A stretch of 64,000 nucleotides of DNA from Antedon bifida (taxonomy: Eukaryota; Echinodermata; Crinoidea; Comatulida; Antedonidae), in the NCBI GenBank assembly GCA_963402885.1, contig OY727095.1, forward strand, positions 7,693,001 to 7,757,000. Direction: 5' to 3'. The notes under the pieces are model-generated. The model saw nothing but the letters and a program-made list of their open reading frames with translations. It was not told the origin of the DNA and ran no database searches. Position numbers and translations under genes: made by a program. Of the stretch, positions 34,901 through 63,475 are shown one piece after another. The first letter of the stretch is position 1. The number at the start of each line of letters is the position of its first letter.

Positions 34901-37900
34901 TACACCAATCAACCAATCACCAATTAGTATCAATGTAAAGAAGGAAGGATTGGTAAATGAAATTAACCTTTATGTTAAACCTGAAGGACTGGTCAAGTGT
35001 GATGATGGTGATTTGATGGTTTCCTGCTACACAAATGAAATTCACAAATACCAACAATCAGGAAAATATGTAAACAAGATAATACTACCAAAAGGTGTAG
35101 GAGTTAAAAGAATGTACAAAATGAAGAATGACAAAATAGCATTCAGTGATAATAAATGCATTCAAGTATGTGATATGAATGGTAAAATGATCAAATCAAT
35201 TGGCAATGGTAAATTGACAGACCCATTTGGTATCCATGTAGATGAGGAAACAAATGTTGTGTATGTAGCAGACTCAACTGAATGTTGCATTTTAACATTT
35301 GACATTAATAGTGGTGAGGAGTTATTAATGAAGATAGGACAACGGCAAGGAGGTAAATTTGGATACAAAGATGTTACACTTACAAAAACTGGTAAAGTGC
35401 TTCTAGTAGATAAGGACAACCATCAAGTATTATTATATGATAAGGACAACAAGTCATTGAAAGTACTAATAGATAAAGGACATGAAAATGGTAAGGTGAT
35501 GTACATATGGGCAGTTGTAGTTGATGATGATGATAACATCATTGTAGCATGTGTTGACAAACTACAACTATTTAGTAGTGATGGACAATTCATCAAGAGA
35601 ATCAGTGGAGATTATTCAATGCAGCTGTGTGTCATTTCAAGTCACCCACGCAGGATTGCCATAACAGATTATACAAATAACAAAATTAAAATATTGAATT
35701 ATTAAATTGTGTACAGATAATTAAATATCTTAAATATATGATGAAACTAATCTAAATGAATTAAATCATAGAATAATATAGTATCTGTTTGATGAAATGG
35801 ACTAAATAAAATATTAAGTAAAATCACATTTTCAGCAATAATTGCAAAATGTTCTTGTTGAATGTGAATACCCTAAAGACTTTTTCGAAGCAGTTCAAGT
35901 TTTTGATTCATTTGATGTTAATGTGATATTCACTTTATAACATAAGTTTTGAATTCAGTGATATTTTCTAATAACATTTTAAAGCCATGCATTCATTTAG
36001 TGTTTATGTGATATTTTTCTGGTAACAGTTTTGCATTTATTTTGTGTAAATTGAATATTTTCTAAACTAACTTAGTATTTATTTAGTTTATTGTGTTATT
36101 TTTTTCAAAATTCCATTTTTTATAAATAAGTTAGAAATTATTGCAACTGTGAAAATGTCAAAAATGTTAATCACATAACTGAAGTTGTTATTATGGGACA
36201 CTATTACTAATAAACTATTTGATAGTGAAATCTAGTTTTCTTGTGTATTTTATTGAGTAGTCTTTTTATAACATTCTTTTAACCATGCTAAATCACTTGC
36301 TTTGGGGTAACAGTGAATCTTACCAGAAATCATTGGTTCGAGTCTTATGTGAAGATGCTGAGGGCTAACAAAGTTCTTGAGGAAAGCAATGCATTATGGG
36401 AAAATACATATGTGCTTGATTGCAACAAGGTTTAACATCCTGGTCACTGTAGGGTAAGGGCAATTCAATTTATATACAGTAGAACCAGCCTTTGGGATAC
36501 TCCTATTAAGGGGACACTTTCACATGGGAGCGAATCAGGAGAAATATGTTTTAACAACATAGCCAACCCCAGTCAGTGTACCCCTCTATTACACTTTGTT
36601 GGGTCCTGATATGGCCAACCCCTATCCAGGGTACCCCTTTATTACACTTTGTTGGGTCCTGATATGGCCAACCCCTATCCAGGGTACCCCTCTATTACAC
36701 TTTGTTTGGTCCTGATATGGCCAAACCCTATCCAGGGTACCCCTCTATTACACTTTGTTGGGTCCTGATATGGCCAACCCTATCTTGGGTACCCCTCTAT
36801 TACACATTGTTGGGTCCTGATATGGCCAACCCCTATTTAGGCTACATCTCTATTACACTTTGTTGGGTTCTGATATGGTAACCCCTATTTAGGCTACACC
36901 TCTATTACACTTTCTAGGGTACCTCTACTAAGGGGACACTTTCTTTCACATTTTCTTAAATCTGAGGAAATATGTTTTAACATTATGGCCTACTCCTATT
37001 TAGGCTATACCTCTATTACACTTTGTTTGGTCCCAGAGATGTCCTCTTAATAGGGGTTTTACTGTACTTACCGTTTCTGCCTTTTTGGGCTTCTTTTCAC
37101 CAGTATAGCCCTCAATCTGTTTAAGATGGTACAGCTGTCTTACTAACGATAGAGCACAAGCGATTGAAGCCGTCTTCTTGTTGGAACCGTTTTCTCGTGC
37201 ATGGATAGCTAACATTGACAACAAAAATTACAGAAATTTACTTTTGAAATTTGTGTTGAAAATTGTAAATAAAAACAGATGATTATTTTGAACTCTGGTT
37301 AGTGAGCGTATCCCCATACCTTAGTTTGGGTTCTGGCATGTACATCTCCTTTCTTTCTTTCAATGATCTTTCTTGAGACTTTTTTTGGGCTTTACAAATC
37401 CATAACCATTTATCTTTGTTAAAGAATCTATAAACTGAAGTGGACGACAATGTGATTTGAGGATTGAAATGAAGAATGTGACTTACTTTTTCTCAGTGGT
37501 TTGATGAATATCGACAACTCTGCAACAAAGCTCCTATAGCAAGCAGAAAGAAAAAACATTCAATCAATTCATGTTTAACCAAATAAAAAAAACACAATTA
37601 ATTAACAATAATCCTTCTTCTAATAAATTCACCAGTATATGCTCACCCCTGTTGATCTTAGAACTTGGGTTAGGTCTGGAATGCGAGGATTAACTGAGTC
37701 TAATTAATTTGACCAATCAAAGACCAAATATGGTAGTGATATGACATCATATTGTCCATATATGGGCAGATCACATTTTTTGTCACATAAAGTTGGATAG
37801 AGTGTATGTAACAGGGTAACAGATATGCTTATACCCAAATACTTGAATGATTTATCTGCTGAATCTGACTTGAATCTGAGAAACCTTGTGGGACCCATTA

Positions 37901-44380: not shown

Positions 44381-47300
44381 ATGGCGGGTGTTGGGGATTT
44401 GTTGAACGCAAGACAAACCAGCTACAAATCGGCCATTTTTGGTCTAATTCTAACCAGTTTATTTACAAGGAGTATATCACAAGCTCTCGATGCTGGGGAT
44501 GAAACGGGCATGAGTAAATGTTACGATTCTTTTGGTGATGCTCAGAGGTGTGTTCCTCCATTTATGAACGCGGCGTTTGAACTACCCGTGGTGGCTGGAA
44601 ATACGTGTGGACAACGGGAAACCCCGACTAAATACTGCCTACAAACTGGAGTAACTGGCGTAACAAAATCATGTCATCTTTGTAATTCTACACATCCAAC
44701 AGCCTCACATCCTTCCAAATATTTGACGGATTTTCACGATGAAGATGCAATTACGTGGTGGCAAAGTGAGACGATGTTGGAGGAAGTACAATTTCCAAAT
44801 TCTGTCAACCTCACCCTCAACTTAGGTAAGAATGGGCGATATCAAATCATTCAGATGCACTAACATTTACTTATTTCTTATGTATGCAGGGTTTATCACC
44901 ATATAAAAGAGTTGTCTTGTGTAAAATGTTATTAGAGATACAACATTTTTTGTTTCAATTCCTTTTTTCAATTACAAAAAGTTTTGTTTTTAAATTAAGT
45001 TAATACAATACAGTGTTCTTAAATTGTGTCTACTTTTTTTTCATCTAACAAATAATTTTTTGAATTCTTTTTTAAAAAATTATTAAATTCAATATTAATA
45101 TTAATTGTGTGAAAATTAATATTTATTATGAAATAAACTATTTGAATAATCGCAGATTTTCTCATATTGCATTAAGTCCTTCCTATATAATAATAATGCA
45201 TTCCTTTTTTCTGTTTATAAAGAGGAAAATATAAGGAGTAGCCTGAAATTAAGGCCCCACCTTATCGACTGTACGATATCACCCCGACATTAAGATATTA
45301 AAATAAAGCCATTATGAAAATATGAATTCATGCTCAAGCTATGCCTCCTTTGTTTGACATTTGTTCTTGTATGGAAGCTATTAATTTTAATGAGGACTAT
45401 TATGTTAGTGGGGTCATATTACACAGGATAAATGATTTACCATTTAGATTAGATCAGTGTGCTTAACAATAAATAAAACTCCTTGAATCCGATTAATAAC
45501 TATGCTATTTAAAATAATTTATTTAAAAAAAATTTCAGCCATACTGTATTTTCTTAATTTTTTATTTCTTTATTCTGACATAAAATCATAGGATAAAAAC
45601 ACAATAAAGTACCGAGATGGCAAACTTATTTCCATTGTGGTCGTAAAATACAGTATAAATAAAAATAAGGTAACACATTGGAATGGGAAAAGTTCCCCTT
45701 GTGTTATACCACTGAAGAGTAGAAATACCACTAATGTGGTAATTGATGTGGCCATCCATAATTACTTACCAGTAAATCATATAGATTTGTATTAAAATGC
45801 TAAGGCAGATAGTATAAACATTTTCTTTTCTTTACTCTTCAACAATGATGATTAAAACATTTGTAATTAACAAAAGTATACTGTATTTCTATATTTATTA
45901 AATTATTATTTATTAAATATTGTTTGTTTGTATCACTGTACTTTTTACTTCACACAATTTGATGTGTACAGTGTTATTCCATTTTAAAGTTTATATTATC
46001 TTATTCAAATTCATAAACGAAAAATCGATATTTAAAAAAAGTAAAACAAAAGCAAAGTTTTATAAAAGCCAAGATCAAGTCAAGGTCAAATATTAATATC
46101 ACCATTTTAATAGTCTGTTACCAGACAAATTTACAGTGGGAAAATTGACAACGACTCATTTTTGTTTTATTGGATACGGTTGATGCCCAAAATGAAGGTG
46201 GAAAAGGAACCATTGAAATCCGCTACCGTGCAATTAATAACAATTACCTTTTCCTGAGTTAAAAATCAAATCTACTGTTAAACTACAATGCAGAGAAAGA
46301 TAACGCCTTGGAAAAATATAGTTTTTAAAATTTTATACACATTAGGTAGACTTTATGATGATACATTATGAAAGGAATCCAATTTGATGAAATTACACAA
46401 ACCAATAGTGGTGTTAGTAGTCTATGAGTGTTAGCTTACTTGTTTAAACCGACAATAGCCTGTGCTCTCCAGAGGGAGGGACTTAGATACGAAAGTAAAA
46501 AGTTCCTAGAACACCCCCACGTCATAATGGACTAGTCCGCAACCACGCCCTCATGTGTTTCAACGTACCACCATCATTTTTCTTTTGTAACATGGAAGAA
46601 ATAGACTGATTTATTTTCCACCAAAGCAATCTTAAACTGGTGATAGTTTACCAATATGATACATTACTTTTATCTTTATAAAATGTAATTTGAAAGGAAA
46701 ATTAGTTTTAGAAATTTATCAAATTCAATTAATCTGTTACTAGTCTACAGTAATTCAAATAAAAATAAAATCTTTCATTATATAATACAGTAAAATCAAT
46801 AGAAAAGTCAAAATAATATTTAAAAGTTATACAAAATAATTCAACAACATTTTCTACCAATTACAGTACTCAATGCTTCTAATGCATGAATTACTGTATG
46901 TATGTAGTGAAAAGGGATTTGAAACTGCCCTTTATATTATTATTTATTATTAAACTGTTTACAGTTTTATCACCAGCCACTTGGTATGTGTAATATTAGC
47001 CTGTGTTTTGCTAGGCCTGATGATCATCTTATTTCTGATGCTGAATATAGCCACATACAGTAGGTTTATGGTGTCTTTTAAATGCCTTTAGGCCTCTACC
47101 ATGAACTCTCTAAAACAAATTTGCCCTACATCCACAGTACAGGCCTTCATGTTACTGTACTATACTAAATGTAGTGGATTGATAGTTGAAATGTTTTAAA
47201 CCACTTTTCCCTTCTGTTAGGGCTTCTCTTTCAACCACATATTCCTTTCTTGCAAGCATGTAATGCCTGTCTCTTGTTTTATAAGGTCCCTTATTAATGT

Positions 47301-50300
47301 TAAATAATTGAAACCTAAATTTATTCTACGATAACTAGTTTATATACATAATGTATGTACAGTAGTATCTAGGAAAACTTTAAATTGAATGTTAAAATGT
47401 TTTTATTACTCCCAATATACTGTATACAAAGTACAGTATTACAGTAACGCAATACAGTACTGTACACATGCGATGTACAGTACTGTAATAACTAATGTCC
47501 ACCGGCAATTAAATAGTAAAGTACTGTAAGGATAACTTTTAACATGTAATATTTCTCTCAACATAAGACCTGGTCCACAGATGTTGTAATGTTGAGTAAC
47601 ACAGTACACATGTAAAGTAATGGACATAGCAGCTTTATCGTAGCCTAGCCTCTACCATGCTTCAAAACTAATGTCCACCATGCAGTGCAGGCCAGTTTTG
47701 AGGTCATCTGGAATTTAAAGTTTGAATTATCTCCTGCTGGTTGGAAATTGGGAAATGTCTCCTTAAATAGTCCCTGTTCAACCCCAACTGGGGTTAAACT
47801 GACTTTGGTTAAGTTTTTATTATGTTTGTGTCTGTAAGAAGAAGACATATTTTATTTATCCATTCAATAACGTTTCATTTGTCCTCCAAAAACATAAAAA
47901 CCTATCTTTTTAAATTAAATTTTTGGTAAAAGTGAATAACTTTGTGCAAAAAAATGTTTTAGATTAAAATTAATTTTTCAGGGGACAATATGCCTTTAAT
48001 CTAAGATTATTATCCTGTAAACTGTGAATTTTATATTAAAATTTAATGATAAAATATATCAAATTCAATGCATTTTTTTGGTTTGAAGCAAATGTAAATG
48101 TGTACCTTTATTCACTGGTATTGGCAATGGCGATATTGGTGATATTATTGGACGTATCAAATGAATACTATATGAATATATATTTATTTTTTGTTGAGCA
48201 AGAAATGTTGCGGGTTTCAAGTTCACTAAATGTAATTATTTTCATGTTTTAGCTTGTTCCACCGAGAGGAATTAAAAAGAAGTATTCCAGTGTTTATCTT
48301 AATAATAGCATGCTTCATAGACTACGGTTTGAGTTGACGGTTTCTTTTGAAATGCGTTGTAGTTTTACACTATTGGCCTAACCTTGCCCTTACTCAATAT
48401 TATTCATAAAACTGTTGTGCTTGGGTTCTGTAGACTTAATTTGATCACTTTAATGAGTTTACCAATCCTAAAGTTTTCTACACTTTATAGTACAGTATAA
48501 CAATGTAATAACAGAGAACCAGGATTGCACATTGTATCAATCAGGCACACTGTATATACAGTAGGTAACTTGCTAAGAATGACTACAATTTTACTGGACA
48601 GAGCTAGGCATCCACCCAGCCTAAAAATTACTGTATGGCCTTTTGCCTACAGATAGCCCCTCTGTATGCTGTAGCTAAAAGTGCTGATTTTTCAACCACC
48701 CTTACTTACTTTTGATACATTATTGCTTTTAAACCGCATATATGCCAACAATCCCGTATTTTAGACTTTTCTCCAGGCCTAATATTGTGCTCCTGGTTTT
48801 CCACATTTTTTCCGGGATTTCCAAGAAAACTGAATTGTTTTTTATTTTTTGCATTAAAAAATAACAAAAATGCTTACAAGCAAATTTACGATAATTAATT
48901 TTTGTATTTTTCTTAATAAGAAAGGGATTCCCCTCACATAGCCGCCATGCGATTACTCTTGTCACACACTGCACTCCTTACCTCTCGATAATATTGATAG
49001 ATATAGGGCGCTGTTGACCTAAAAAAACACCACAATTTTTTTGACTAACCCCACACCCACAGTCTCCAAATGTGCACTTACAATGACTATCTATACAGCA
49101 TCAGCTGAACCCCACACCCACAGTCTCCAAATGTGCACTTACAATGACTATCTATACAGCATCAGCTGAACCCCACACCCACAGTCTCCAAATGTGCACT
49201 TACAATGACTATCTATACAGCATCAGCTGAACCCCACACCCACAGTCTCCAAATGTGCACAATGACTATCTATACAGCATCAGCTGTTAGTGTTTTTATT
49301 GGATTTTGATGCGTAATTTGATTGATGATTGCTATGTTATGTGATATGAAATCATTCTGTAATTGACTCAAATTAAATTAAGCTTTTAAGAGGACTTCAC
49401 TGAGAGTTCATAGAATGTATTTTCAAGGAGGCAGTGCAGTGTGGACTCATAGTGAAGGTTTACAGTACAGTATATCTAGCTCTTTTATTGTTAAAGCTGA
49501 TTAAAACCTTCTACAGTACCTTGCCTCAAAATACATATTTGTATGTGCAATAGGCCAGCCATAGCTACAGAGGTACTGTAGCCCATAGTCGTCATAATTG
49601 GCAAGGTTAAAGGCACTCCTCAGCAGCTAAAACAAAATAAGAAAAAAGATTAAAATACATAAAGTATAAAAATAAAGATATTTTAGGATGAAACTGAGCA
49701 AAATTTTTTGATTTAAAAAAAGTATGTGAAAAGTCGCAGTCTGAATAGGCCCTAAATTGATATACACTGTATTATATAGTTCTCAAACTCAGTGGTGGGA
49801 ATATTCCTCTTTAGATAATTACTAAATACTTACTATGGAGAAACAGGTAAACATTATATACTTTATGTATAGTGCTTTTTAACTTGAATACAAGACAATG
49901 GTTGTCCATGATCATGGATGAATAAATGCAGTAATTGAAGTTATTATGACAAGAGGCGCCAAATGATTATGTAAACTAGAGATTAGTTCAAAGTCATATC
50001 CCTCCTGTGTAAACACTTGATTCTTTTGTATGTTGACAAGAACATGTACAATACTACCAAACTTTACTTTTATTTAGACGTTTGTTGTCACTTCATCAAG
50101 TAGACAAAGGTCATAGTAAGGTCAAGTATTTATCTGTGGTCCTTTGGGACAGATCAAAATTGCTATACCTCTAATTAGATTTGTCCAAGCAGATAAAATT
50201 ATTCTGGAAGGAACCCTCAAGCTGAAATAGTTTTTAAAAATGAAGAATATATGTAGTGACTGGAATAAATTTTAGAGTACCGACCATAAATATCTCCCAA

Positions 50301-53300
50301 TTTTTCGACAAGTCTGACGCATCATGAATTCGTTGAGATTTCGTCAATGACGCGTCTATGCAAGGCCTATTTCATCCTAACATTGTTATTGTGACGCATT
50401 CACACCCCTCGATATTGTTTAACAAATATTCAATCGTGTCGAAATAACAATCTCTATATTTGTGCCTACTGTAGCATGGTAATAATATCTAGATAACTTT
50501 TATTACCATTTTGTCTACCAAAGATAAAGTGAAATAGAAAGTTTCCAACAATGGTACAGTTCATGTCAAGCTAACACAACCGAACACACCAGTGTTATCA
50601 TTTCTGTTATTTTATCAAAGTATTTAAATACTGCAATGCAATATATCATTTTATTATTATACCGAATCTCAATTTTTAATGCTGATGTCATATCGTTTTA
50701 ACTCTGTAATTTAAATTCTCTCTGTATATTTATTTGTTTTATCATATTTAGATTTTAATACAACATCAACATATTTGCTATAATCTTTTAACCTCAGACC
50801 GTGTAATATCACTTTAATGTCCATTGTTTATCATATGTGCAATAAAAGTGGGCTGCCCCCACAAAAGAGAAAAAAAAACATTTCTGTTATGCTTTACTTT
50901 GTATTATAAAAATTGTAATGTCACATCCTGCTTTTAATGTTACTGCAATTGTTTATGTCGCATCTTCATTAAACCTCCTTAACAAAATAAACATTTCAAG
51001 ATATGTTGATTGTTTGTTAGTGGACATGTTTCATGTTTGTCACAGATCGTCCTCAAAAGTTGTTAGTGAAAAAGGAACAAAAAAGGAAAATGCTCCGATA
51101 TCTTTTACTTAAACGCTGAATCATTTATCTTATAGCTAAACAGTGATAATGAATAGAACATTGCAATGGAATACAATTTACAAAAGTTTTGTTTGTGTTT
51201 GTAGTTAGTAACCAACCATTGGTCCTTGGATTTCTAGTTTTAGTATGTAGTTTGTTGGTATTTTTGATCAAAGCAATTTGCTCAACTCGTTTAAGATAAC
51301 AAACATGTTGGCACTTAAAACTAATGTGGTGGTCTCTTTACAACTTTTATTTGAAACAGTGGTTTGTCTACTAAAGACTTTATTTCAATCAATTAGTTTC
51401 ATAGAAATGTGCGCTATTATATAAGTAAGTGTTAATGTTTATAACAGTTTATAACTAACAATATGTGAAATTTCTGGAAATAATAAACTGAATAAAAGAT
51501 AATAAAACTAGCATGTATTGTAACCCAAAAAAATGAAAAAGAAGATTAATAAAATCACTTTAAATAGGCCATTTTGCAGTTTTAATAAAGTTATTCACTT
51601 CTGTAAAAAAAACAAAATTTTACTATAATAAAAAGACAAAAGAAAATTTAAGTATTTTTTGCTTTAAAAATTAAATTACATAAAAGGGGGTGGGGGACAA
51701 TATATCTTTAACTATGATAATGTGTGAACATTAAATTAAAAATTGTGGAAGTTAAAATTCTCAACCCCACCCCAATTATTCTCACCAATATGACAAATTC
51801 CCTGTATATATATAAATGTTTGTTCGCCAAAGTGAAAAGAAGGAAAAACATCCACCCTAAAACAAACACCTTATTCAAGGTTGGGTAAAATCCAACGTTA
51901 ATAGTAAAAGAATAACTTGCTACGGAAACTGTCGAGACAAAATAATAATATCCATTAGTCGTTGATGCATGAAGTCAACAGTATGAAATGCTAGATTAAA
52001 GATAATAATTGAACCCATTGTTAAAAGGGATTGACTCTTGTACTCGTTTGAAAATACATAGTAAATGCATGATTGATTAAAACTGACAAATTTAGATTGT
52101 AAACGATAGGACAGTAAGTAAATATTAAGCATACAGTGCTTTAGTATGATTACATTATTTGATAAAAGGTAAATTCAAATTTGTAATAGTGTATTACATA
52201 CCAATTTGTTCAATTGGACAAACAAGAATGAAAATATATGCTAATAAACTATAAAAATTGACTAACTTCATCAAACTGTTGTCCCTGTACTAAATAATGA
52301 ATTTATTCATATACTTTTAAAACATGATGCCTTTTATTCATACTAAAAGAGAGTTTTAAAAAAGTAGCGAAGCAAAATCAGTAGATGTACAGTATTAATA
52401 TATAGTATGAATATTTAAACTTCCAAATAAATTGGAATTCCTATACAATGAATTGAAGTGTGGCTTATCTTTTCTTTGTATCAGCACTAGGTGCAACAAA
52501 ATGCTGAAATGTAGAACTTTTGTCAAAAAGTCTGTAAAAGCCACTGGCATATTATCGGTTGTTGTGAATTGATAATTAGAGCAGTGTGTTGTGCGGTGGA
52601 AACATGTTGATCTGGCCGATGATTCAACCAAGTTTCATGCTGGGTTCATGGTGCGCCCTCTGTAACTGGCTTTCTGCAGGCAGTTTGTTCTAAGGCTGCA
52701 TTCCACACGCATGCAATCGGTCTCACACTGCTTTCCCTGCTTCTACCAGCGACCTAAATGTTTTGACACTGACATTGTTCAGACTGGTTTACAATATGTT
52801 TGATTTCTTTAAATTTACCACTGTCAGACATTTGTGGTAGAAACAATATATAATGACTAAAAAAAGAAATCATTTTCATTCAGATTTCTTGTTGTTGAAA
52901 AAGTGAGTCACTGACGTTATCATTTTCACAGAATCTGTAAATTTTTCTCCACACTCTCTGGTGTTTATTTTTTTATTTGAATTTGAGCCTAAAAATATAT
53001 TATTTTTTCGGCAATTTGAGCCTCAAAATTTATTCCTTTTTTTTTGGCAATTTCAATTTCATTTTTAAAAAATTGTGTACATTTCTTTTTGAATTTGAGT
53101 ATTAAGGTGGTATGTTATATCAAACAATATAAATATTAACCCTGAGTTGCCCTTTAAAACTCAGTACAATATTGTATGTACTGGAAGCTTACTTTAAGCT
53201 TAGGCATTACACCTTGCTAATGGAATTTTAGGTGTATTAATATCAGCATAATCTGTACTGTTATCTCAGCCTATTATTTACCAGATTCTAGTTTCAGTCT

Positions 53301-56300
53301 GTGGTATGGTAACTTAAGATTGATTACGTCTTTAGTCAATCCTGTGTGTTAATGCCAAATTTAATAATAATACATTCGTTCATGGTATAAAATGGTATAA
53401 AACTTGAAAAATTGAACATTGAAAGCAGAAAAACATTGAAGATAAAAAATGTATATTTATAAATAGTTTAAAACTTTGAAGATTTATATAGCATACAAAA
53501 ATGTCTGGACTCTACAATTCAGGAATTTTAGCTAATATAAAACCCACAAACTACATTAACTGTACGTTTGATTAAAGACTGTCTACTAAAATAAACCCAT
53601 CCACTCCAATTAAAGTTTCCTCCATTCAAATCTTCATTTAAACCCAAATAAAAGATCGCCAAACCCCTGTAAATGTTCCAATAAAAGATCAACTAAAAAT
53701 CTGTTTTCTACACACAGACGTACTTACCATGTAAACTAGAAAATATATTTCTTTCTTTGAAAATGGTTGTCTTTTTCACACCTTTTATTGTTTATACAGT
53801 TTGACCTACTTTCCTGCATATGCCCCACCTACCCCACCTGGGAATTATCACCTGGAATTGGGTCAAGTATGTAACAAATAGTCTGATAACATATTTGAGC
53901 TGTTTTGTATATTTTCATTGAAGAAAATATTTACTTTTTATGCTGAAAATCTTGTTCCCAAATTATATGATACTTTCAGATTTTAATTTTTACTTTATAA
54001 TTTACACTCTTGACTTCTCTATTTTTCAGGAAAATCTTTTGATATTACATTTGTTAGACTGAAATTCCATACGAGTCGACCAGAGTCGTTTGCCATCTAC
54101 AAGCGTACAACTTCCGAATCCGATTGGACACCTTACCAGTATTATAGTGGCGACTGTCTGACAATGTATAACCTACCATTAAAGGAGTATATTACATATG
54201 AAATGGAAGATAAGGCAATATGTACTGACGAGTACAGTAACATTTCGCCACTCACTGGAGGTAATGTGGCATTCAGTACGCTGCAAGGTAGACCTAGCAG
54301 AACCGCTTTTGATCAAAGTCCAGTATTGCAGGTACAGTATATTCACTTAACAGAAAATACAATACAGCCTCATACGGATTAATTACATTTTAGCAATTTG
54401 TAACATTGACGCGAACAGCACAAAATGTAAAGTTATCAAGTCTACTTAGGAGGGCCTTTACCCTACAATGGGTTGAAAATAACTATCGATGATGACAACA
54501 ATGATATGATTAAACTTGCGATTAGTTATAGCAATTATGACACCCAGTTGCACACATTAGCAATACTATCAAGTGTAAGTTCAAAATTACAACTTTGCAC
54601 ATCTGTATAACAGATGAGGATTTTCGTATCATATTTGGAACGTTTTTGCACCTTGGGCTTATTTTATAATTGTATGAATTTGTTATCCTGAGATTTTTAA
54701 ATGTCTGTTTATTTGTGTACCACACATTGATAAGTGATTATTTGGGAGTACAACCTTAGCAGAAATGCGGTTAATTCTTAAATAAATTGGCATTGTGCAG
54801 CAGAAACAGGCCCATAGAAAAATAATGTTTGCAAGTATGATTTCTTGAAGTCTCTTTAAACTTTTGGCAAAACCGTTCACCTACATGAACACTCACTGTT
54901 GACACCCACTCACAGGATTATGTAGGTAGTATCAATATACAAATTGGATTGATGATGGTCCAGGCTATGATGCTAACAATAACAATGATTGTGATCATGT
55001 AGTGTATAAAAATACAGTTAAACAGTGTTCTTCTTGGGGGTTCTAGTAAATTAAAAAAATAGTACTTAAAAAGAATAGTACAATTACAGTACATTGGGGA
55101 AATAATTGTGCACATATTCAATGTATGTATAGGACTAATTGCTGTATGTCCTATTTGAAGGATGAGAAAACGTAATAGTGTCACAGGATGGCACACATAG
55201 GACTTGAACCCATGCCTCTCACATGTTTGTACAATTCTGTATCTCCTACTGTACTATTTTCCATACCACTCTCAATTACTGTAATTGTGCATAGAGTAGG
55301 GGACACATTCAGGACTCAAATAAGTGTCCCCTGAAAAAGTGTTGGTTGTGTTAAGACACTTTCTCTTGTTCATGTCATGGGAAAGTATTCCTTTTAAAAG
55401 GGATGTCCCCTGAATTAGGATATCCCCAAGAAAGAGGTTGTATTATATGTTATGGGTACTGTACAATATCTCTGAGTTTAAAATGACTTGTTTATAACAT
55501 AAAACATTTGCAACCCCAATGACAATAACCCCCCTTATTTTTCTTTTATATAGGAATGGGTTACAGCCACTGACATTAGAATAACTCTGAACCGACTCAA
55601 CACATTCGGAGATGAAGTGTTTAATGCGCCAAATGTGCTAAGATCTTACTATTACGCCATCTCTGACTTCTCTGTTGGTGCAAGGTTTGTTCAGCATTTC
55701 TGTCTTGTTTACCAAATTCCAGGTCCACCTAAAACATACTGGCAATTTGATTTGTTTCCTACAGTACTAGATTAACGTCTTGTAGGATTCTCGAAAATGT
55801 TTTCTGCTCATGCTTTGTAGTGTTAGGTCGAATTGTTATGAGCTCTCACTGGCTAAACCAATGGGCACCAAAGGGCTCCATTCTAGCGTGAGCGCCCCTA
55901 ATGCACAGTGATGTACTTTAGCCACAGGAAATAAAGTGGTGCGATTTTCGCAAGAAAAGGGACAATCTCTTTTCAAGCCACTGGGTTGTCAAAGGCCTCT
56001 GTGAAAATGGTCAGGTTGAAATCTTACCAACCATACTTGTGGATAAGGCCCTGATGCAACTACTCAACGTTGGAGGGCCCTTAAAAGTGCTAAACCAGGG
56101 GTCTTTGCCTTGTGCGTTTATACAGCTAAGTCTTGTTAGAAAGTTAAACCAATCACTTATAATGTGATTTTAAAAACTGTAAAGATCAGAAAATGTCATT
56201 GTACTGTTATACTTACTGTATGGTTATTTTTATCACCATTTCATAATCATGGGCGTGGCCATTTCATTTGAATGATAATTATATCATCATAGGCGTGGTA

Positions 56301-59300
56301 TGGCAGAACATCACCAGAAGTTCTCACTTGTAGTTGTACACAGCAGAGATCAAATTTATATGGTTTTTAAGGATAATTGAAGCTTTCAATTATATATACA
56401 AAAAATGGTATGATTTTTGTTATGTTTTAGATGTAAATGTAATGGCCATGCGAATCAATGCAAGATGAGCACTGCAGAAAATGGTGATGAGAGGATGGTA
56501 TGCGTATGTAGTCACAACACCGCTGGTGCTGACTGTGAACAGTGTAAACCCTTCTACAACAATAAGCCTTGGGGGCCGGCTACTGCAGCTGATGCACATG
56601 AGTGTGAAAGTAAGTATATTCAACAGCCTGATCATTTTGGCCGTTGTACTAATTCTTCTCCCTCCCCCTCTCAAAGACAATGGTGAGTAAACCTCCTGAC
56701 CTAACCCCTTGATAAAAGATATGAATTTAGGCTTTTTTAAACCGGTGGGTGAGATAACTAGTATCTCAAATAATCGTACATTGATTAACATGATGTATTG
56801 ATGTCTCCACCTATGCTGTTTGGTTTACATTTATTGGTGCATTGGCCATAGGATACAATTCTTTGAGTAGATAGGATTTAAACCCAGGACCTCAGTTTTG
56901 TAAGCAGCTATCACCCACTAAGTTACATTGCCACTGGGGATTTGTTGCTGTAGATCTTTGATTTCGGAGACTATCCATGAATAAAGCTGGAGTGTCTGAC
57001 AGACAAATCATGTATATATAATATTTGTTAACTTTCCCCTCTTCAGTTTATTAATTATTTTGAGGTTATAGTGGTTGCATGTAAACAATTATATATCTTA
57101 GTAGATTAGTTAAAAATGAAAATACCAAATATTCTGCTAACTAGTGTTTAGTCTGGTGCAAAAATTATTTTTAATGAAATAGCAATTATTTCGTTTTCTG
57201 TTTGTATTAGATGCCACAATTTAGATATTAAGTGTCACTGTTGTTGTCTCATCATATAGATGGTCTCATTTAAGAAACCAACTTTTAGTCTAGACACATT
57301 TCAGCATAAACATTCTGTATATATTTTGTTTATCTTTATTTGTTTATGTTTTTCACTGTGGATAAAGTTGATTAAACTCTCGTTAAGAACAATACACTAA
57401 TAATAGCAAGACATACTTGTATGATACAAAATACTAATTGAATTTTCTGTGCAATTTTATCTTTTTTGTTAATTCTGTTTTATTGAAATTATGTGGTAAA
57501 TGATGATGAACAAGCTTTCTGTTATAATTTTTATGTTTGTGAATTTATTATTTCGGTAATGCCTATTCTCAATTCCCCTAACATCACTAATTTTGCCCTG
57601 AGTAGATTCCATGACCCATTTCCATTCTTTAGTACTCTACAGTAAATAAATAGTGAATATTGTGCAAGTTAAAATCCTTTTCCATGTGACCCCTGTGTGA
57701 ACTCTTGGCTATTTAAGCATGGTACAATATTTGCATTGTTTATCTATAGTGTATTGTAAATATCTGTGCCCATTAAGTAGAAAGGGTTTATAAATTAATA
57801 TATTCACTTTACTATTCACCTAGGCCTGGTACCTTACAGGGTATTAGACAGTAAGGTATCTACGTAAATTATGAGACTTGTACCAACCTCCAATAGACAG
57901 GGAAACAATCCATTGCTCCCATTTAATGTTTATCCATTATTACTTCTTAGGTTACAGTTTCCTTCCTGAGCCCTAGTAAAGTAGACAGTGGGTTCAGTCA
58001 ATTGAAAAGAAAGGTGAACATTGTCATCTAGAACAGGAAGTGATTTGATCAGATAGTTTTTTTTTAGTAACAATAATATTTTCCCAAGGATTGTGATTTC
58101 TCGAAAGTTTCTCAACAATAGTTTGTTTTAATCACAGCTGAGCTTTTTCAGCATTTTGTATTTTCAGATAGCACAGTTTAATTTTCAGTTTAAACCCCTT
58201 TCACATTTAATAACAATCATTCAAGCTCTGTCTACACTATCACACTAGTTTGACAAAACAAGTTTGACCCAACCCAAATATGGTAGTGATATGCTTAAAT
58301 ATGGTAGTGATATGACATCATTATGTCCTTACATTGTATGGCCACATTTTTTTGTCGTCACATAAAGTTTGATAGACAGAGCCCAACAAAACTATTTAAT
58401 TCTTCATAGCATAATTGCACAGTATTTTTCTTAATTTGCTGCCCTCTATGTGATATTTACTGAACCAAAAGAAAGTTTATGAGCTTCTTTGCAGACTGTG
58501 GTTACCAGTGGGTTCACTAGGGTGATAAATCAACTGGTTGTAAACACTATCATCACCTTTAATGTGTTAATCCATGGCTAGGCACTGCATTCCAAGCAGC
58601 TTAGCTCATAAGTAACATTTTAAACTTTGTACATCACAGTTTACCACATGATGTTTTAAAAAAACGTGAACAGAGCGGAATGGTAGTAATGGCCTATGAC
58701 CTATATAATATTATTTTTAAAAACAAATTTAAATACATTAAACGATTATATATTATTCCCATAGTAAATTATTTCTTAAATAATATTATTAAAGCCAAAG
58801 GCTAACACTGAACCATATAAAAGCATGGATCACATTGTACAGAATTTACTAAAAATAATAAATATTTAAAACAAAACTGTATTCTAGTATCAACATCTGA
58901 ATTTAAGAAATGTTGTATTAATTTATAAAAACCAAGTAAATGTTGACATTGTTTACATTATTTCTCTTTAGTATATTTAGTTAGCATTTGGTTGCTAGGT
59001 ACAGACACAAGATTCTAATTGACCATTTGACCATTAGGTACCCTGATGAGACTATAATGAGTGACTGATAAGGCATCTTACTTAGCTTATACCTCCATAC
59101 TTAGCTAAGTCTTGAATGCATTTGAAGAAAGCGTTGGAGATGCTTAACAGCATACAAGTGTATTATACCAGTTTTAGACTTTACTAGATTTTCTGAACAT
59201 TTTCATTGAAAAAAAAAGTGGAAAACTGCTGTAATTTTCTTATCCAGTAATTTCTTCAAGATTTGTTGATGCTATTGAGATTAAATTTAATGGTTGGAAT

Positions 59301-62300
59301 TAAAATTAAGAATGCTGTAATTCCAATAATCTTCAGCAAGAACATTTCTATAATCTTACAACAAGAACATATTCTACATCAATGTTGAGAAAACTGCACT
59401 AACTTTGCTGCTGTGAAAGTAGCTGTCTAAATTTGTTGGATCACTATTTTTACATTTGATTAGATTGGTTGCTTGTTTTCTACAGTATTTCAAATATTGG
59501 ATGTTTTAACAAGGAAAGTTTCATATTAGTCTTGGAAACAGGCTAACTATTATACTTGCTAAGTCATTTGTTTTCAGATATTGATGTATTGGATTGAATT
59601 TGTATTGGATTGAACTTGTATTGGATTGAATTTGTATTGGATTGAATTTTTATTGGATTGAATTTGTATTGGATTGAATTTGTATTGGATTGAATTTGTA
59701 TTGGATTGAATTTGTATTGGATTAAATTTGTATTGGATTGAATTTGTATTGGATTGAATTTGTATTGGAAAGAATTTGTATTTGGATTTTGAAACTTTCT
59801 ACTATTTTGTAGTTCAATACTATTAAACTAAACCCGGATTCTGTCTGTATTTTTCTTTTCTCATTGAATAATAAATTACTACTTGCCAAGTTTGAAATGT
59901 TATTAAATTTCCAATTAACAAGGGAGTAATTTAAGTATTTGAAGGAAATCTAATTATAAGGAACTTTGTATTATATTTCAAATATTGCTTGATTTAAATT
60001 TTGGTAACACACATTTTTAACCTGGAGTACTTGCATTTCTGTTTTGATATTTCATTTTAAAGTTAGCCGAGCATTGAAGACATTCGCATTCAGATCACAG
60101 AGGAAAATAATTTGGATTATTCGTTTAAAAAAAATTGGATAAAGTTGAACTTTTGTTACGGTTTTGATTGGAAAAGTAAAGATATTAACTGTACTTCACT
60201 GTGTGAATTTCTCAATACTGTATTTTGTTCTGCAACTGTTCTGACTATCTGTTATTTTTACATTTTCTTTTCATTTGAATCAAGAAGCTATACGTAGTTT
60301 GATTTTTAGTTTTTTTTCTAGAGAATACCAAATAGTAGTGGAACGTTTTTCATGAGATATCGCCGTTTTATAATACTTCATTCAGAAGTAATCTTTTGTA
60401 TAACAGGATTTGTATAACTATTTACAGGATTGTAATAGTTGCATAAAGTATCTCATCGCATAGATTGATAGAAGATTTACGATTTGTGGACTTTGTAATA
60501 AAGAGCATTCGCAATAGGACATGGCTCTATTTACTTATATAAAAACTAAGTCTTTATTCGTCTTGTTGCTTGTTTCTGTTGCCAATGGTTACTGGTATTG
60601 GCACAAAGACCGTTGGAATTGTAAGTTACATTGAAAATTGTCAAGACCTTAGCTTATTTATATAATTTTCCAAAACCAAAAGATTTACAGACGGATAAAA
60701 CTTTGTCTTGATTGCTGTAAAAGGAAAACTGTGTTGATGCTTGACAATTTAATATGAAAATAAACTTTTGTATTTCTTAATAAAATTTACTGTTTTATTT
60801 CAGTATGCGACTGTAATGGTTTCTCGAACCGTTGTATGTTCAATCAAGATTTGTACGACAGAACAGGTTACGGAGGATTTTGCGTTGACTGCACACAGAA
60901 TACCGCTGGACCTAAATGCGACAGATGTAAGGAAAATTATTACCGATCGTCGCTTTCAGAGCCATGCAGACTGTGCGGCTGTAATCTTGTGGGTAAGGGA
61001 TAATTTAAAGCTATATCATTGTATTTTATCTGTTTTTACCAAATTGTAACCTTTTTAACTCTATTTTTATGTGAATTTTTAACGAAAATAATCAAGCCAT
61101 GTACTATATTTTACTGTTTGAACATGAATAAATGAAATTGAATTCTATTGTCCCCACAAAACATGAACAATAAAGATTAATAAAATCAGATTTTAAATAT
61201 ACTATTTTGTAGTTTTAACAAAATTAATCACCCCGAAAAAATAAGGTTTTCAGTTATAAAATGACCAAATAAGCTTCAAACTCAAAAAATATTACTGTAT
61301 TTTCAGGTAAATAATTTTTTTTATCCAATTTTTGGTTAAAAGTGAATAACTATAATGTGACATTAAGATGGCATATTAAAAAAAAATTAACATTAACAAA
61401 CAAACAAATTAAGCAAAACATTGTTAGTGATTGGTTCTTGTGGAGAACTTTGATCTTGGTAAAAGTGCCATAGAAGAGAAATGATTATATAAATATTAAT
61501 GATTAGATGATGGTATTCATTTAAATGTTTAATAATATGATTGTTCAGTTTGTGTTTCGTTTTTCAGAAACAATACAGTAACAATTCATTTATTTTTTAA
61601 CATTTTTATTTTATTCAATCGAAACCAACAGCGATAATTAATGCCACTAACAGGTTTGATACAAACAAAGCCAGGACTGTTTAAAGTACCTTGATTGGTC
61701 CTAACATTGATCAAGGATTTCTCTCGTCCAGTGCCCACCTTGACCAGAGAAAAGGCATAAGCCAATACGTCTGAGGCAGATACGAGATGCAGGGACTGCC
61801 ATAAGAGTCAGCAGTGTTGATTTCAAATGCCTGACGGGATCCCAGCTCCATATACAGCACCCGATATTCCCAGATGGTCTCCCATCCAATCTCTAACCAG
61901 GCCCAATGTTGCTTAACTTCGGTGATCTGACGAGAACGTTTCAACGTGGTATAAAGCTGTATATGTTCATATTGAATCTTATTGTGTGCCATATGGTTAA
62001 AGTAAGTGAATTGTAGTACTGTAGTATAGCTTAAAGAATCATTTGGCTAAGGTTGTTTATTTGTGTTATCTCATCTTTACAGGGTCACTCAATTTACAAT
62101 GTTCATCTAATGGTCAGTGTGTATGTAAACCTGGTGTGGGTGGTCTTAGGTGTGACCAGTGTTTGCCTAATTACTACGACTTTGGAATTACTGGATGCAG
62201 GTATCAATGGTTGCTAATATCAACACTATAGTTCTACAATCATACTTTAATGATGTATTGTCCCCCAAAAAACATGAAAACGAAGATTATACTCAGACTT

Positions 62301-63475
62301 AGGTTATTTTGTAGTGTTAATAAATGTTAAATCACTTTAGAAATGCAAGAAAAATAAACAAAATGCATTTCCACTTATAAAATGACAAAATAAATGGTTA
62401 AATTCAACCAAAAACCCATTGGCTGGCAGCCAATTTGACTATTTGTTGCTTTACATTACATTTTTCAGGTAAATACATTTGTTTTCGATCCAATTTTTGG
62501 TCAAAGTGGATAACTATTATGTCACATTATCATGGCATACTCAACAAAAAATTGTTTAAGAATGATTTTTTCAGGGGGATAATATATTATCTTTAATTAA
62601 TATTTTTCATAAAGAAATATTTTTGGCTTGCTCTTTACAGTACTCTGATATATCAAACTTTATTGTATCTGTATATGGTTTATATAAATAATCAACATTC
62701 AACAATGACGAAAATAGTTTTTTGCTATTCAATTAATTGTTTATTTTCATTGCCCATTGTTTACAGGGCTTGTAATTGTTATGGAGATGGTAGCCTGGGC
62801 AACCAGGAAGATTGTAATTCTAATTCAGGTGACTGCTCCTGTAAGCAGAATGTCGAAGGTCGCAACTGTGACAGGTGAGGTTTAATAGGTCAGAGTTCAC
62901 TACAGCTATAAATTCAAGAAGTGATAACAGTAACACATTATAACATGTACCTTTTACAAACCCATAAAGTACTGTAGTTTCAGATGACACTTGCCTTATA
63001 AAACAAAAGTAAAGTTAAAGTAATAATTCTTCTAACTGAATGAACACAATGTAAACTGATGATTTTATAGTTGTGGATGGTTGTTGAAGTGAATGGCAAT
63101 ACTATTAATGTTTCTTCATGAAAAGTAATTAAAACTACATTCACACAGAACGGAAGACATCTATTTTCTATTATTTAACAAACGATGCAGTCTTCCGTTC
63201 CATGAAACAGAAAAATGTGAATGTAGTTTAAGAAATCAAAACCACAGAAAAGAAGTATCAAATGGAACCATAATCCTATGCCTTAGTGAGCCTGAGAGCC
63301 TAGACAAATTTCACTGATATCGTTAAAATGTTTTTTAGGTGCAAGCCAGGATTCTTCAACCTACAAGGCTCTGATGAGTTTGGTTGTCTAGCCTGCTTCT
63401 GTCACGGCCATTCCTCTGACTGTACATCTATACCAGGCTATGAAAACTCTAAAATAGAAAGTAGATTCACTTTAG
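44381..63475 (+). CDS. LAMC1: Laminin subunit gamma-1-like, 5' part (8 exons; continues past the window)
   Basis: Exons: 44381-44825, 54030-54331, 55554-55684, 56431-56609, 60804-60992, 62083-62200, 62767-62874, 63339-63475. All have GT/AG borders and continuous phase, about 536 residues so far. The start codon has a strong context (ACCATGG) and is followed by a signal peptide (hydrophobic [11 protein letters not shown]). The LN domain spans about residues 45-292, with hallmark strings [32 protein letters not shown] and [14 protein letters not shown] repeats follow from residue 293 ([10 protein letters not shown], then [10 protein letters not shown], then [13 protein letters not shown] and onward), and the last exon enters the L4 (laminin IV) domain. 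Laminin gamma-1 joins alpha and beta chains in the cross-shaped trimer of basement membranes; its LN domain mediates network polymerisation. Intron 1 is 9.2 kb. Human LAMC1 is also close to DHX9. Confidence 0.97.
47880..47990. mobile_element. TATTGTCCCCC-family MITE, internally deleted copy
   Basis: A degenerate left end (TTGTCCTCCAAAAACAT) and a clear right end (AGGGGACAATA). It retains the AAAAGTGAATAACTTTGTGC stretch typical of the right half of this family. Confidence 0.65.
49045..49290. repeat. 61 bp tandem repeat, 4 copies
   Basis: The unit begins AACCCCACACCCACAGTCTC and ends TACAGCATCAGCTG. The first three copies are identical by eye; the fourth lacks six bases around GTGCACTTACAATG. 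Confidence 0.92.
51516..51702. mobile_element. TATTGTCCCCC-family MITE, copy 3
   Basis: Starts TATTGTAACCC and ends GGGGGACAATA, with the family's GATTAATAAAATCA motif inside. Confidence 0.75.
54332..55553. other. Laminin intron 2
   Basis: At about 55186-55255 the minus strand has a tRNA-like B-box (GGGTTCAAGTCC), probably a SINE relic. At about 55296-55450 there are GGGGACACATTCAGG and GATGTCCCCTGAATTAGG stretches resembling the interior of the minisatellite-bearing MITE, but with no clear termini. Nothing else seen. Confidence 0.5.
55685..56430. other. Laminin intron 3
   Basis: A moderately GC-richer stretch at about 55830-56110 (CTCACTGGCTAAACCAATGG and onward) looks repeat-derived. No gene seen. 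Confidence 0.45.
56868..56934 (-). repeat. tRNA-derived SINE head or tRNA relic
   Basis: On the minus strand: GTGGCAATGTAACTTAGTGG, then TGCTTACAAAACTGAGGTCC, then GGGTTTAAATCC. The B-box is near consensus and the D-arm region is recognisable, but the acceptor stem does not pair convincingly. This is typical of the tRNA heads of animal SINEs. Confidence 0.55.
58225..58382. mobile_element. GCTCTGTCTACACTATCA-type MITE
   Basis: Starts GCTCTGTCTACACTATCA and ends GATAGACAGAGC, an imperfect inverted pair. The interior has repeated ATGGTAGTGATATG words and CACATTTTTTTGTCGTCACA. Partial copies lie near 2595-2640, 7906-7980 and 37722-37800. Confidence 0.75.
59585..59790. repeat. 16 bp minisatellite, about 12-13 copies
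   Basis: Unit GTATTGGATTGAATTT with few substitutions. It lies about 0.73 kb upstream of the alternative laminin first exon. Confidence 0.93.
60521..60620 (+). CDS. LAMC1: Alternative first coding exon of laminin gamma (predicts an LN-less isoform)
   Basis: An ATG in good context (GGACATGG) opens 33 codons plus one base, ending at a GTAAGT donor at 60621. The peptide is a clear signal sequence: basic start ([10 protein letters not shown]), hydrophobic core [13 protein letters not shown], then [10 protein letters not shown]. The single leftover base matches the phase of the acceptor at 60804, so splicing into laminin exon 5 continues in frame as ...[13 protein letters not shown]. The product would lack the LN domain and LE1 and begin at LE2. 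Vertebrate laminin gamma-2 also lacks LN and starts with the equivalent CDCNG repeat after its signal peptide. An LN-less chain cannot take part in LN-mediated network assembly. The peptide features and phase are seen; use of the exon is inferred. A chance ORF with signal peptide, good donor and correct phase is possible but unlikely. Confidence 0.68.
61146..61395. mobile_element. TATTGTCCCCC-family MITE, copy 4 (right end decayed)
   Basis: Starts TATTGTCCCC and has GATTAATAAAATCAGATTTT and AAAAGTGAATAACTATAATG, but the terminal GGGGGACAATA is no longer recognisable. Confidence 0.7.
61600..61960 (-). mobile_element. 5S rRNA-headed SINE (SINE3-like)
   Basis: On the minus strand about 61959-61850 is 5S rRNA-derived: the internal control region is recognisable (GATCACCGAAGTTAAGCAAC, GGGCCTGGTTAGAG, TTGGATGGGAGACCATCTGG, GAATATCGGGTGCTGTA), with substitutions relative to animal 5S RNA. 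A body of about 240 bases follows, then a tail ending GTTGGTTTCGATTGAATAAA. That tail is also found without the head at 10041-10135. The head plus foreign body and tail identify a SINE rather than a 5S gene. It lies antisense in laminin intron 5. Confidence 0.85.
62256..62584. mobile_element. TATTGTCCCCC-family MITE, copy 5
   Basis: Starts TATTGTCCCCC; the right end is GGGGGATAATATA. Interior motifs match copies 1 and 4. It lies within laminin intron 6. Confidence 0.8.
63132..63229. repeat. 98 bp inverted-repeat element
   Basis: Starts AAACTACATTCACA and ends with its complement TGTGAATGTAGTTT. A second inner pair, ACGGAAGAC and GTCTTCCGT, extends the hairpin. A related end (AGCTACATTCACA) appears near 7980. 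Confidence 0.75.

What the first reader, a model, noticed from the sequence alone, without database searches (positions are those of the whole stretch)
60521..60992. Alternative first exon would make a laminin gamma-2-like, LN-less chain from a gamma-1 gene
A signal-peptide exon inside intron 4 has a good start context, a GTAAGT donor and the exact phase to join exon 5. The isoform would begin at the LE2 repeat (CDCNG...), where vertebrate laminin gamma-2 begins. In vertebrates LAMC2 is the tandem neighbour of LAMC1. If real, the gamma-2 form may have existed as a promoter choice before it became a separate gene (duplication followed by division of labour). The alternative is independent convergence.
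Basis: partly seen in the sequence, partly recalled or inferred. Interest (0 to 1): 0.88.

Follow-up and report, generated by a model that had tools for sequence, protein, structure and literature searches.

The report
Hidden short-laminin start exon in crinoid
A feather-star laminin gamma-1 gene seems to contain a second, internal start exon that would make a shortened laminin without its network-forming tip, and gene models of insects and a water flea show just such a short chain.

Summary
The sequence claim holds. Window 60521-60620 encodes a signal peptide plus a 10-residue linker and ends at GTAAGT in phase 1, like exon 4, so it can splice to exon 5 (60804) and start the chain at LE2 without the LN domain. 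The same filter passed one other locus in 628 kb of strand sequence from this genome, which looks like a genuine esterase first exon. The animal is a crinoid near Antedon. Unexpected: 17 LN-less gamma-1 proteins (16 from insects and a water flea, one unnamed and arthropod-like) join at this same residue. Junction residues fit a phase-1 intron in 16 of 17 pairs, and the 16 sit beside full-length gamma-1 of related species. So an LN-less gamma-1 by alternative first exon is well supported by annotation in arthropods. Against the crinoid exon: no transcript found, no LN-less crinoid entry listed, intron-like codon composition, no linker similarity to arthropods. I put it at about 0.6 that the exon is used. 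Common ancestry with LAMC2 or the arthropod exon is not shown.

The parts
44381..44825 (+). LAMC1 coding exon 1 (canonical signal peptide and start of LN domain), ends phase 1
   Evidence: Pfam Laminin_N 1.3e-82 over the spliced product
54030..54331 (+). LAMC1 exon 2 (LN), ends phase 0
   Evidence: 99% to P0002 Antedon mediterranea gamma-1
55554..55684 (+). LAMC1 exon 3 (end of LN), ends phase 2
   Evidence: 100% to P0002
56431..56609 (+). LAMC1 exon 4 (LE1), ends phase 1
   Evidence: 100% to P0002
60355..60520 (+). ATG-free stretch that could serve as promoter-proximal sequence and 5' leader of the alternative exon
   Evidence: 166 nt without ATG; 2.9% of 2287 ATG-ATG gaps in the window stretches tested are as long; no transcription start mapped
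60521..60620 (+). candidate alternative first exon: signal peptide plus [10 protein letters not shown] linker, ends phase 1 at GTAAGT
   Evidence: one match of the region in the genome search
60804..60992 (+). LAMC1 exon 5 (LE2, CDCNG...), shared by both forms
62083..62200 (+). LAMC1 exon 6 (LE3)
   Evidence: LE numbering by eye
62767..62874 (+). LAMC1 exon 7 (most of LE4)
   Evidence: LE numbering by eye
63339..63475 (+). LAMC1 exon 8 (rest of LE4, next LE start and run-up to L4); the gene runs on beyond the window to about C8:7769160
   Evidence: LE numbering by eye

Best explanation
The 100-nt exon is an alternative first exon of the crinoid laminin gamma-1 gene. A promoter inside intron 4 would start a transcript whose signal peptide replaces exons 1-4, giving a gamma-1 chain that begins at LE2 and lacks LN and LE1 but keeps LE2 onward, L4, the nidogen-type LE repeat (NIDSNAV) and the coiled coil. 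Such a chain should still form alpha-beta-gamma trimers, but the trimer would lack the gamma LN tip needed for the polymer node, so it would dilute, cap or loosen the basement-membrane network where it is made. Shown here: the sequence features, phase, rarity by chance, and the same architecture in arthropod gamma-1 gene models. Inferred: transcription, secretion, trimer assembly and the effect on polymerisation.
For: Signal peptide, GTAAGT donor, phase identical to exon 4, clean ATG context, 166-nt ATG-free leader. The one other locus passing the same filter in 628 kb of strand sequence looks like a real signal-peptide exon. Simulated introns: 0 of 3000 at the strict and 3 of 3000 at the GT[AG]AG setting. 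Precedent at the identical junction: 17 LN-less gamma-1 proteins with their own N-terminus, 16 of 17 signal-peptide-like by a somewhat relaxed form of my rule, 14 of 17 named 'isoform X2' by NCBI; junction residue compatible with a phase-1 intron in 16 of 17 pairs against a mean of 8.6 for random re-pairing. In a tree of the shared part (43 of the 163 proteins held) 16 of the 17 short chains sit beside full-length gamma-1 of related species, so they are most simply forms of that gene, not an old separate gene. Laminins with gamma-2, alpha-3A or alpha-4 lack LN domains required for polymerisation (PMC11260871, passages).
Against: No transcript evidence: no LN-less crinoid protein among the 120 listed of 366 hits (718-2283 aa), and none of 23 hits of 198-630 aa is near the crinoid sequence (best identity 60%). 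The very near relative Antedon mediterranea (P0002, one member) appears with the full-length form alone. Codon composition is intron-like. The donor's exonic side (ATT) is weak (score 1.3; the gene's eight tested donors range 0.5-9.1, donor table recalled). The linker does not resemble the arthropod linkers (1811 of 2000 shuffles score as high). With loose criteria about 5% of simulated introns give a comparable hit.
Confidence: 0.6

Rival explanations
1. Chance open frame: an AT-rich intron happened to give a hydrophobic ORF followed by a GTAAGT in the right phase; nothing is transcribed from it.
For: Intron-like whole-codon composition; no LN-less start in the eight echinoderm gamma-1 entries listed; with loose criteria (any GT[AG], core >=3.0) 146 of 3000 simulated introns give a similar hit, and 41 looser candidate starts occur in 628 kb.
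Against: At moderately strict settings chance gives about 0-0.02 per intron of this length; ATG-free leader, good start context and an independently annotated gene form at exactly this junction in arthropods.
Confidence: 0.35
2. Ancestral isoform: the LN-less gamma-1 start is older than the protostome-deuterostome split; crinoid and arthropod exons descend from it, and vertebrate LAMC2 is the same form fixed as its own gene after tandem duplication.
For: Same residue and same phase in arthropods and crinoid, same residue in (recalled) LAMC2; the LN-less form is at least as old as insects plus Branchiopoda if its WDG linker is inherited; weevils show the duplicated state, with the three LN-less X2 forms in one of two gamma-1 paralogue clades.
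Against: The linker shows no similarity between crinoid and arthropods; no LN-less form with its own start among the listed molluscs, brachiopod, annelid, hemichordate, amphioxus or other echinoderms (120 of 366 hits, cluster representatives). One phase-1 intron before LE2 makes independent gain easy.
Confidence: 0.1
3. A spliced internal exon rather than a transcription start: the sequence AATAG|GACATGG is an acceptor and the exon is joined to an untranslated first exon further upstream; the protein product is the same.
For: An AG lies directly before the ATG context.
Against: The stretch before that AG is purine-rich rather than a polypyrimidine tract (by eye); no upstream exon identified or searched for.
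Confidence: 0.08

Closest known systems
Arthropod LN-less laminin gamma-1 (NCBI 'laminin subunit gamma-1 isoform X2', e.g. Neocloeon, Bacillus rossius, Sipha, Zophobas, Nomia; also Cinara and the water flea Sida under other names)
   Same: Own signal peptide joined at the residue before the LE2 motif C[DN]CNG, phase-1 compatible junction, LN and LE1 missing, rest of gamma-1 kept
   Different: Their linker carries W[DN]G, mostly WDGITPWF (W[DN]G in 15 of 17); the crinoid linker [10 protein letters not shown] is tryptophan-rich but not similar; the crinoid form has no transcript evidence
Vertebrate laminin gamma-2 (LAMC2)
   Same: Signal peptide followed within a few residues by LE2; start residue aligns to the same position of gamma-1 (LAMC2 letters recalled)
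   Different: LAMC2 is a separate gene next to LAMC1 (recalled); here the exon lies inside the gamma-1 gene and no LAMC2-like gene was found; the crinoid chain keeps a NIDSNAV nidogen-type loop (motif meaning recalled)
LAMA3A versus LAMA3B
   Same: Alternative promoters within one laminin gene give a short and a long form (PMC8388930, passage); alpha-3A lacks LN (PMC11260871, passage)
   Different: Alpha chain, different domain position; promoters are described there, not here

Membership tests
Laminin gamma-1 chain gene | LN, LE repeats, L4 and coiled-coil C-terminus in one gene | tested here: met
   Pfam Laminin_N and EGF_laminin, Laminin_B exons at C8:7759083 and 7759834, coil exons at C8:7763654-7769164, 86-98% to P0002
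LN-less gamma-1 alternative-first-exon isoform (arthropod type) | Signal-peptide exon joining exactly before LE2 in phase 1 | tested here: met
   for the crinoid DNA; for arthropods junction and phase are inferred from proteins
LN-less gamma-1 alternative-first-exon isoform (arthropod type) | W[DN]G...PWF linker | tested here: not met
   1811 of 2000 shuffles of the crinoid linker score as high against 14 linkers; 15 of 17 proteins have W[DN]G
LN-less gamma-1 alternative-first-exon isoform (arthropod type) | Transcript evidence | tested here: inconclusive
   no crinoid LN-less protein or fragment; only two crinoid entries (P0001, P0002) were seen at all
Laminin gamma-2 (LAMC2) | Chain starts at LE2, no LN | tested here: met
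   predicted product only
Laminin gamma-2 (LAMC2) | Separate gene beside LAMC1 | tested here: not met
   the exon lies in intron 4 of the gamma-1 gene and shares exon 5 onward; whole-genome search with the full gamma-1 protein gave coil matches only at this locus, 29 of 289 first-look candidates being scored
Promoter-choice laminin (LAMA3A/B kind) | Two active promoters in one gene | not testable with these tools
   no RNA, CAGE or chromatin data at hand

The most novel reading that the evidence does not exclude
An LN-less gamma-1 chain made by promoter choice at the intron before LE2 is an ancient bilaterian form of the gamma-1 gene, kept in arthropods and crinoids, and vertebrate LAMC2 is that form frozen as its own gene after tandem duplication.
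Probability: 0.1. Interest if true: 0.85.

Novelty: new variant of a known kind. Interest (0 to 1): 0.62.

Why it matters
Insects are described as having a single gamma chain (abstract of PMC4515764, listing), and gamma-2 is usually taken as a vertebrate addition (recalled). The arthropod gene models say that one gamma-1 gene can make both a polymerising and an LN-less chain, with the short form seen in a mayfly, a stick insect, bugs, beetles, Hymenoptera and a water flea. If the crinoid exon is also used, the switch occurs in deuterostomes too, and a gene pair such as LAMC1/LAMC2 could have begun as a choice of promoter. It is testable at once in insects, where RNAi is routine, and in crinoid RNA-seq.

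Tried and rejected
Linker homology between crinoid and arthropods: tested, not supported. Second gamma gene in this genome: none found by full-protein search (29 of 289 candidates scored); the weaker LE2 matches are netrin-like (L002), laminin-beta-like by recalled resemblance (L004) and a divergent LE gene at C8:7298 kb (L003). LN-lacking rows not counted as the isoform: of the ten LN-lacking among the 120 listed, P0033 Lytechinus begins inside the LN region and P0072 is another LE protein; of the 25 hits, 12 were dropped because they keep LE1 or LN sequence, are marked partial, or start with sequence I judged not signal-like (P0064, P0127, P0130-P0135, P0137-P0140). P0077 Asterias also begins inside the LN region. 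The DNA search of phage records was uninformative. The Anneissia protein P0001 has exons 5 and 8 twice; it may be assembly or model duplication, so I did not use it as support. No gamma-2 chain was among the solved structures matched, so its letters rest on recall. Papers: no report of an LN-less gamma-1 appeared in the listings (one search is uninformative because of its hyphenated term; some searches listed 10 of 19, 12 of 111 and 12 of 14 papers); most subscription papers, including Fahey and Degnan 2012 (seen only as a reference), are not in that library. sought a genome paper for the species and listed none.

Full report
What the window is. The window is G000:C8:7693001-7757000 of a 315.6-Mb genome in 27 contigs. 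The laminin gamma-1 gene on the + strand is 98% identical to Antedon mediterranea gamma-1 over the shared part of the query and 79% to Anneissia japonica, so the animal is a crinoid near Antedon (inference). Eight coding exons lie in the window (44381-63475) and the gene ends near C8:7769160.

The observation. The exon 60521-60620 is as described: ATG in a good context, 33 codons plus one base, GTAAGT, phase 1 like exon 4, then a 183-nt intron to exon 5 at 60804. The product reads [39 protein letters not shown]; Pfam sees only laminin EGF domains in it, against Laminin_N plus EGF in the canonical product. A genome search with 60300-60803 returned this place alone.

How unlikely by chance. Simulated introns gave 0, 3, 17 and 146 of 3000 at four settings from strict to loose. 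A scan of 628,000 strand-nt of this genome (window, five downstream stretches, twenty other 10-kb stretches, exons included) gave 41 candidate starts at the loosest setting, 4 with a GT[AG]AG donor, 3 of these with core >=3 (two of them nested starts of one frame), and two loci with a positive n-region as well: this exon and the start of an esterase-like gene (COesterase 5.4e-5, below Pfam's cut-off). An earlier scan of 246,906 strand-nt gave one other hit at the candidate's own thresholds. The thresholds were chosen knowing the candidate, so I read this as roughly 0.1 to 5% per intron. The ATG-free leader of 166 nt is matched by 2.9% of 2287 gaps. Three or more tryptophans in ten codons occur in 7 of 8170 open 10-codon intron windows, an after-the-fact statistic. 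Against it, the whole-codon score is -10.2, lower than all 655 coding windows and ordinary for introns; the canonical signal peptide also scores low (-1.2), so hydrophobic leaders are a poor test. Synonymous choice alone is +0.9, in between.

The unexpected support. Searching with the short form returned LN-less gamma-1 proteins (of 120 listed from 366, ten lack the LN domain, eight of them with a signal-like start directly before LE2, read). A second search among proteins of 440-1400 aa gave 25 hits, 13 of this kind. Together there are 17: one stick insect, four Hemiptera, five beetles, four Hymenoptera, one mayfly, the water flea Sida, and one unnamed sequence P0136, closest by BLAST to Limulus and other arthropods but unresolved in the tree. 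Sixteen of 17 have a signal-peptide-like start by a relaxed form of my rule (Linepithema fails) and 15 of 17 a W[DN]G linker, mostly WDGITPWFSGS. Fourteen carry the NCBI name isoform X2; P0136 comes from a 4.6-kb contig that holds a 1326-aa frame, so it is probably a transcript, as the Sida entry may be (inference). In 17 pairs of short and full-length proteins, the partners picked by me from related species or the other paralogue, the residue before LE2 is compatible with a phase-1 split in 16 (Agrilus against the Tribolium entry is not), against a mean of 8.6 and 8 of 20,000 random re-pairings reaching 16 (relatedness is not corrected for). In a tree of the shared region (43 of the proteins held) the 16 named short proteins sit beside full-length gamma-1 of related species. 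They are therefore most simply forms of the gamma-1 gene. In the four weevils sampled gamma-1 is duplicated, and the three short forms there fall in one of the two clades.

What it does. LN domains of adjacent laminins join to form the polymer node; laminins with gamma-2, alpha-3A and alpha-4 lack the LN domains needed for polymerisation (PMC11260871, abstract start, passages). LAMA3 makes short and long forms from alternative promoters (PMC8388930, passage). A crinoid short gamma-1 would by analogy assemble through its coil, keep the nidogen-type loop (NIDSNAVGNCDR in the downstream exon; motif meaning recalled) and fail to contribute a gamma LN tip. Transcription, secretion and effect are inferred.

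The evolutionary claim. The crinoid short chain, the arthropod short chains and LAMC2 start at the same residue: C35 of the crinoid form and C28 of recalled human LAMC2 both fall on residue 311 of 4aqt, taking the equal-length matches as ungapped. That is what a shared phase-1 intron before LE2 would allow, by descent or repeatedly. Descent is not shown: the linkers are dissimilar, and the eight echinoderm entries listed (P0001, P0002, P0017, P0028, P0031, P0033, P0063, P0077) include no LN-less start; these are cluster representatives, and P0031, named isoform X1 with five members, could hide another form. No second gamma gene was found here (29 of 289 candidates scored), so the crinoid would show the single-gene state. 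DHX9 lies next to LAMC1 in this genome as it does in human 1q25.3 (recalled), which makes the locus a good one for tracing where LAMC2 arose.

Verdict. Observation confirmed; exon use about 0.6 likely; the general idea that an LN-less gamma chain can exist as a first-exon choice is well supported in arthropods by annotation and a conserved linker; descent of LAMC2 from it remains open, about 0.1.

Noticed in passing
P0013, P0014, P0016, P0021, P0026, P0042, P0052, P0066, P0121-P0126, P0128, P0129: An LN-less gamma-1 form in insects and a water flea, with its own signal-like start and, in 15 of these 16, a W[DN]G linker; no mention found in the paper listings searched.
   Followed up: yes
P0136 (unnamed contig, 4.6 kb): LN-less gamma-1 with its own signal peptide but a long basic linker without W[DN]G; nearest Limulus by BLAST, unresolved in the tree.
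   Followed up: partly
   Followed up: partly
window 10909-42010, minus strand: DHX9-like RNA helicase gene (dsRNA-binding motifs, helicase exon, RGG tail) lies head to head with LAMC1; the two are also neighbours in human 1q25.3 (recalled).
   Followed up: partly
window 20660-35612, plus strand: Several similar open frames with filamin-like and NHL-repeat sequence (TRIM2/3-like by recall) within the span of the helicase gene.
   Followed up: no
window 61849-61964, minus strand: 5S rRNA-like sequence (55.8 bits) inside LAMC1 intron 5, perhaps a 5S-derived SINE or pseudogene.
   Followed up: no
P0001 (Anneissia japonica gamma-1, 1704 aa): Stretches corresponding to exon 5 and exon 8 appear twice in the protein model; duplication or assembly artefact.
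   Followed up: no
window 59590-59780: Tandem repeat of about 16 nt (GTATTGGATTGAATTT, read by eye) upstream of the alternative exon in intron 4.
   Followed up: no
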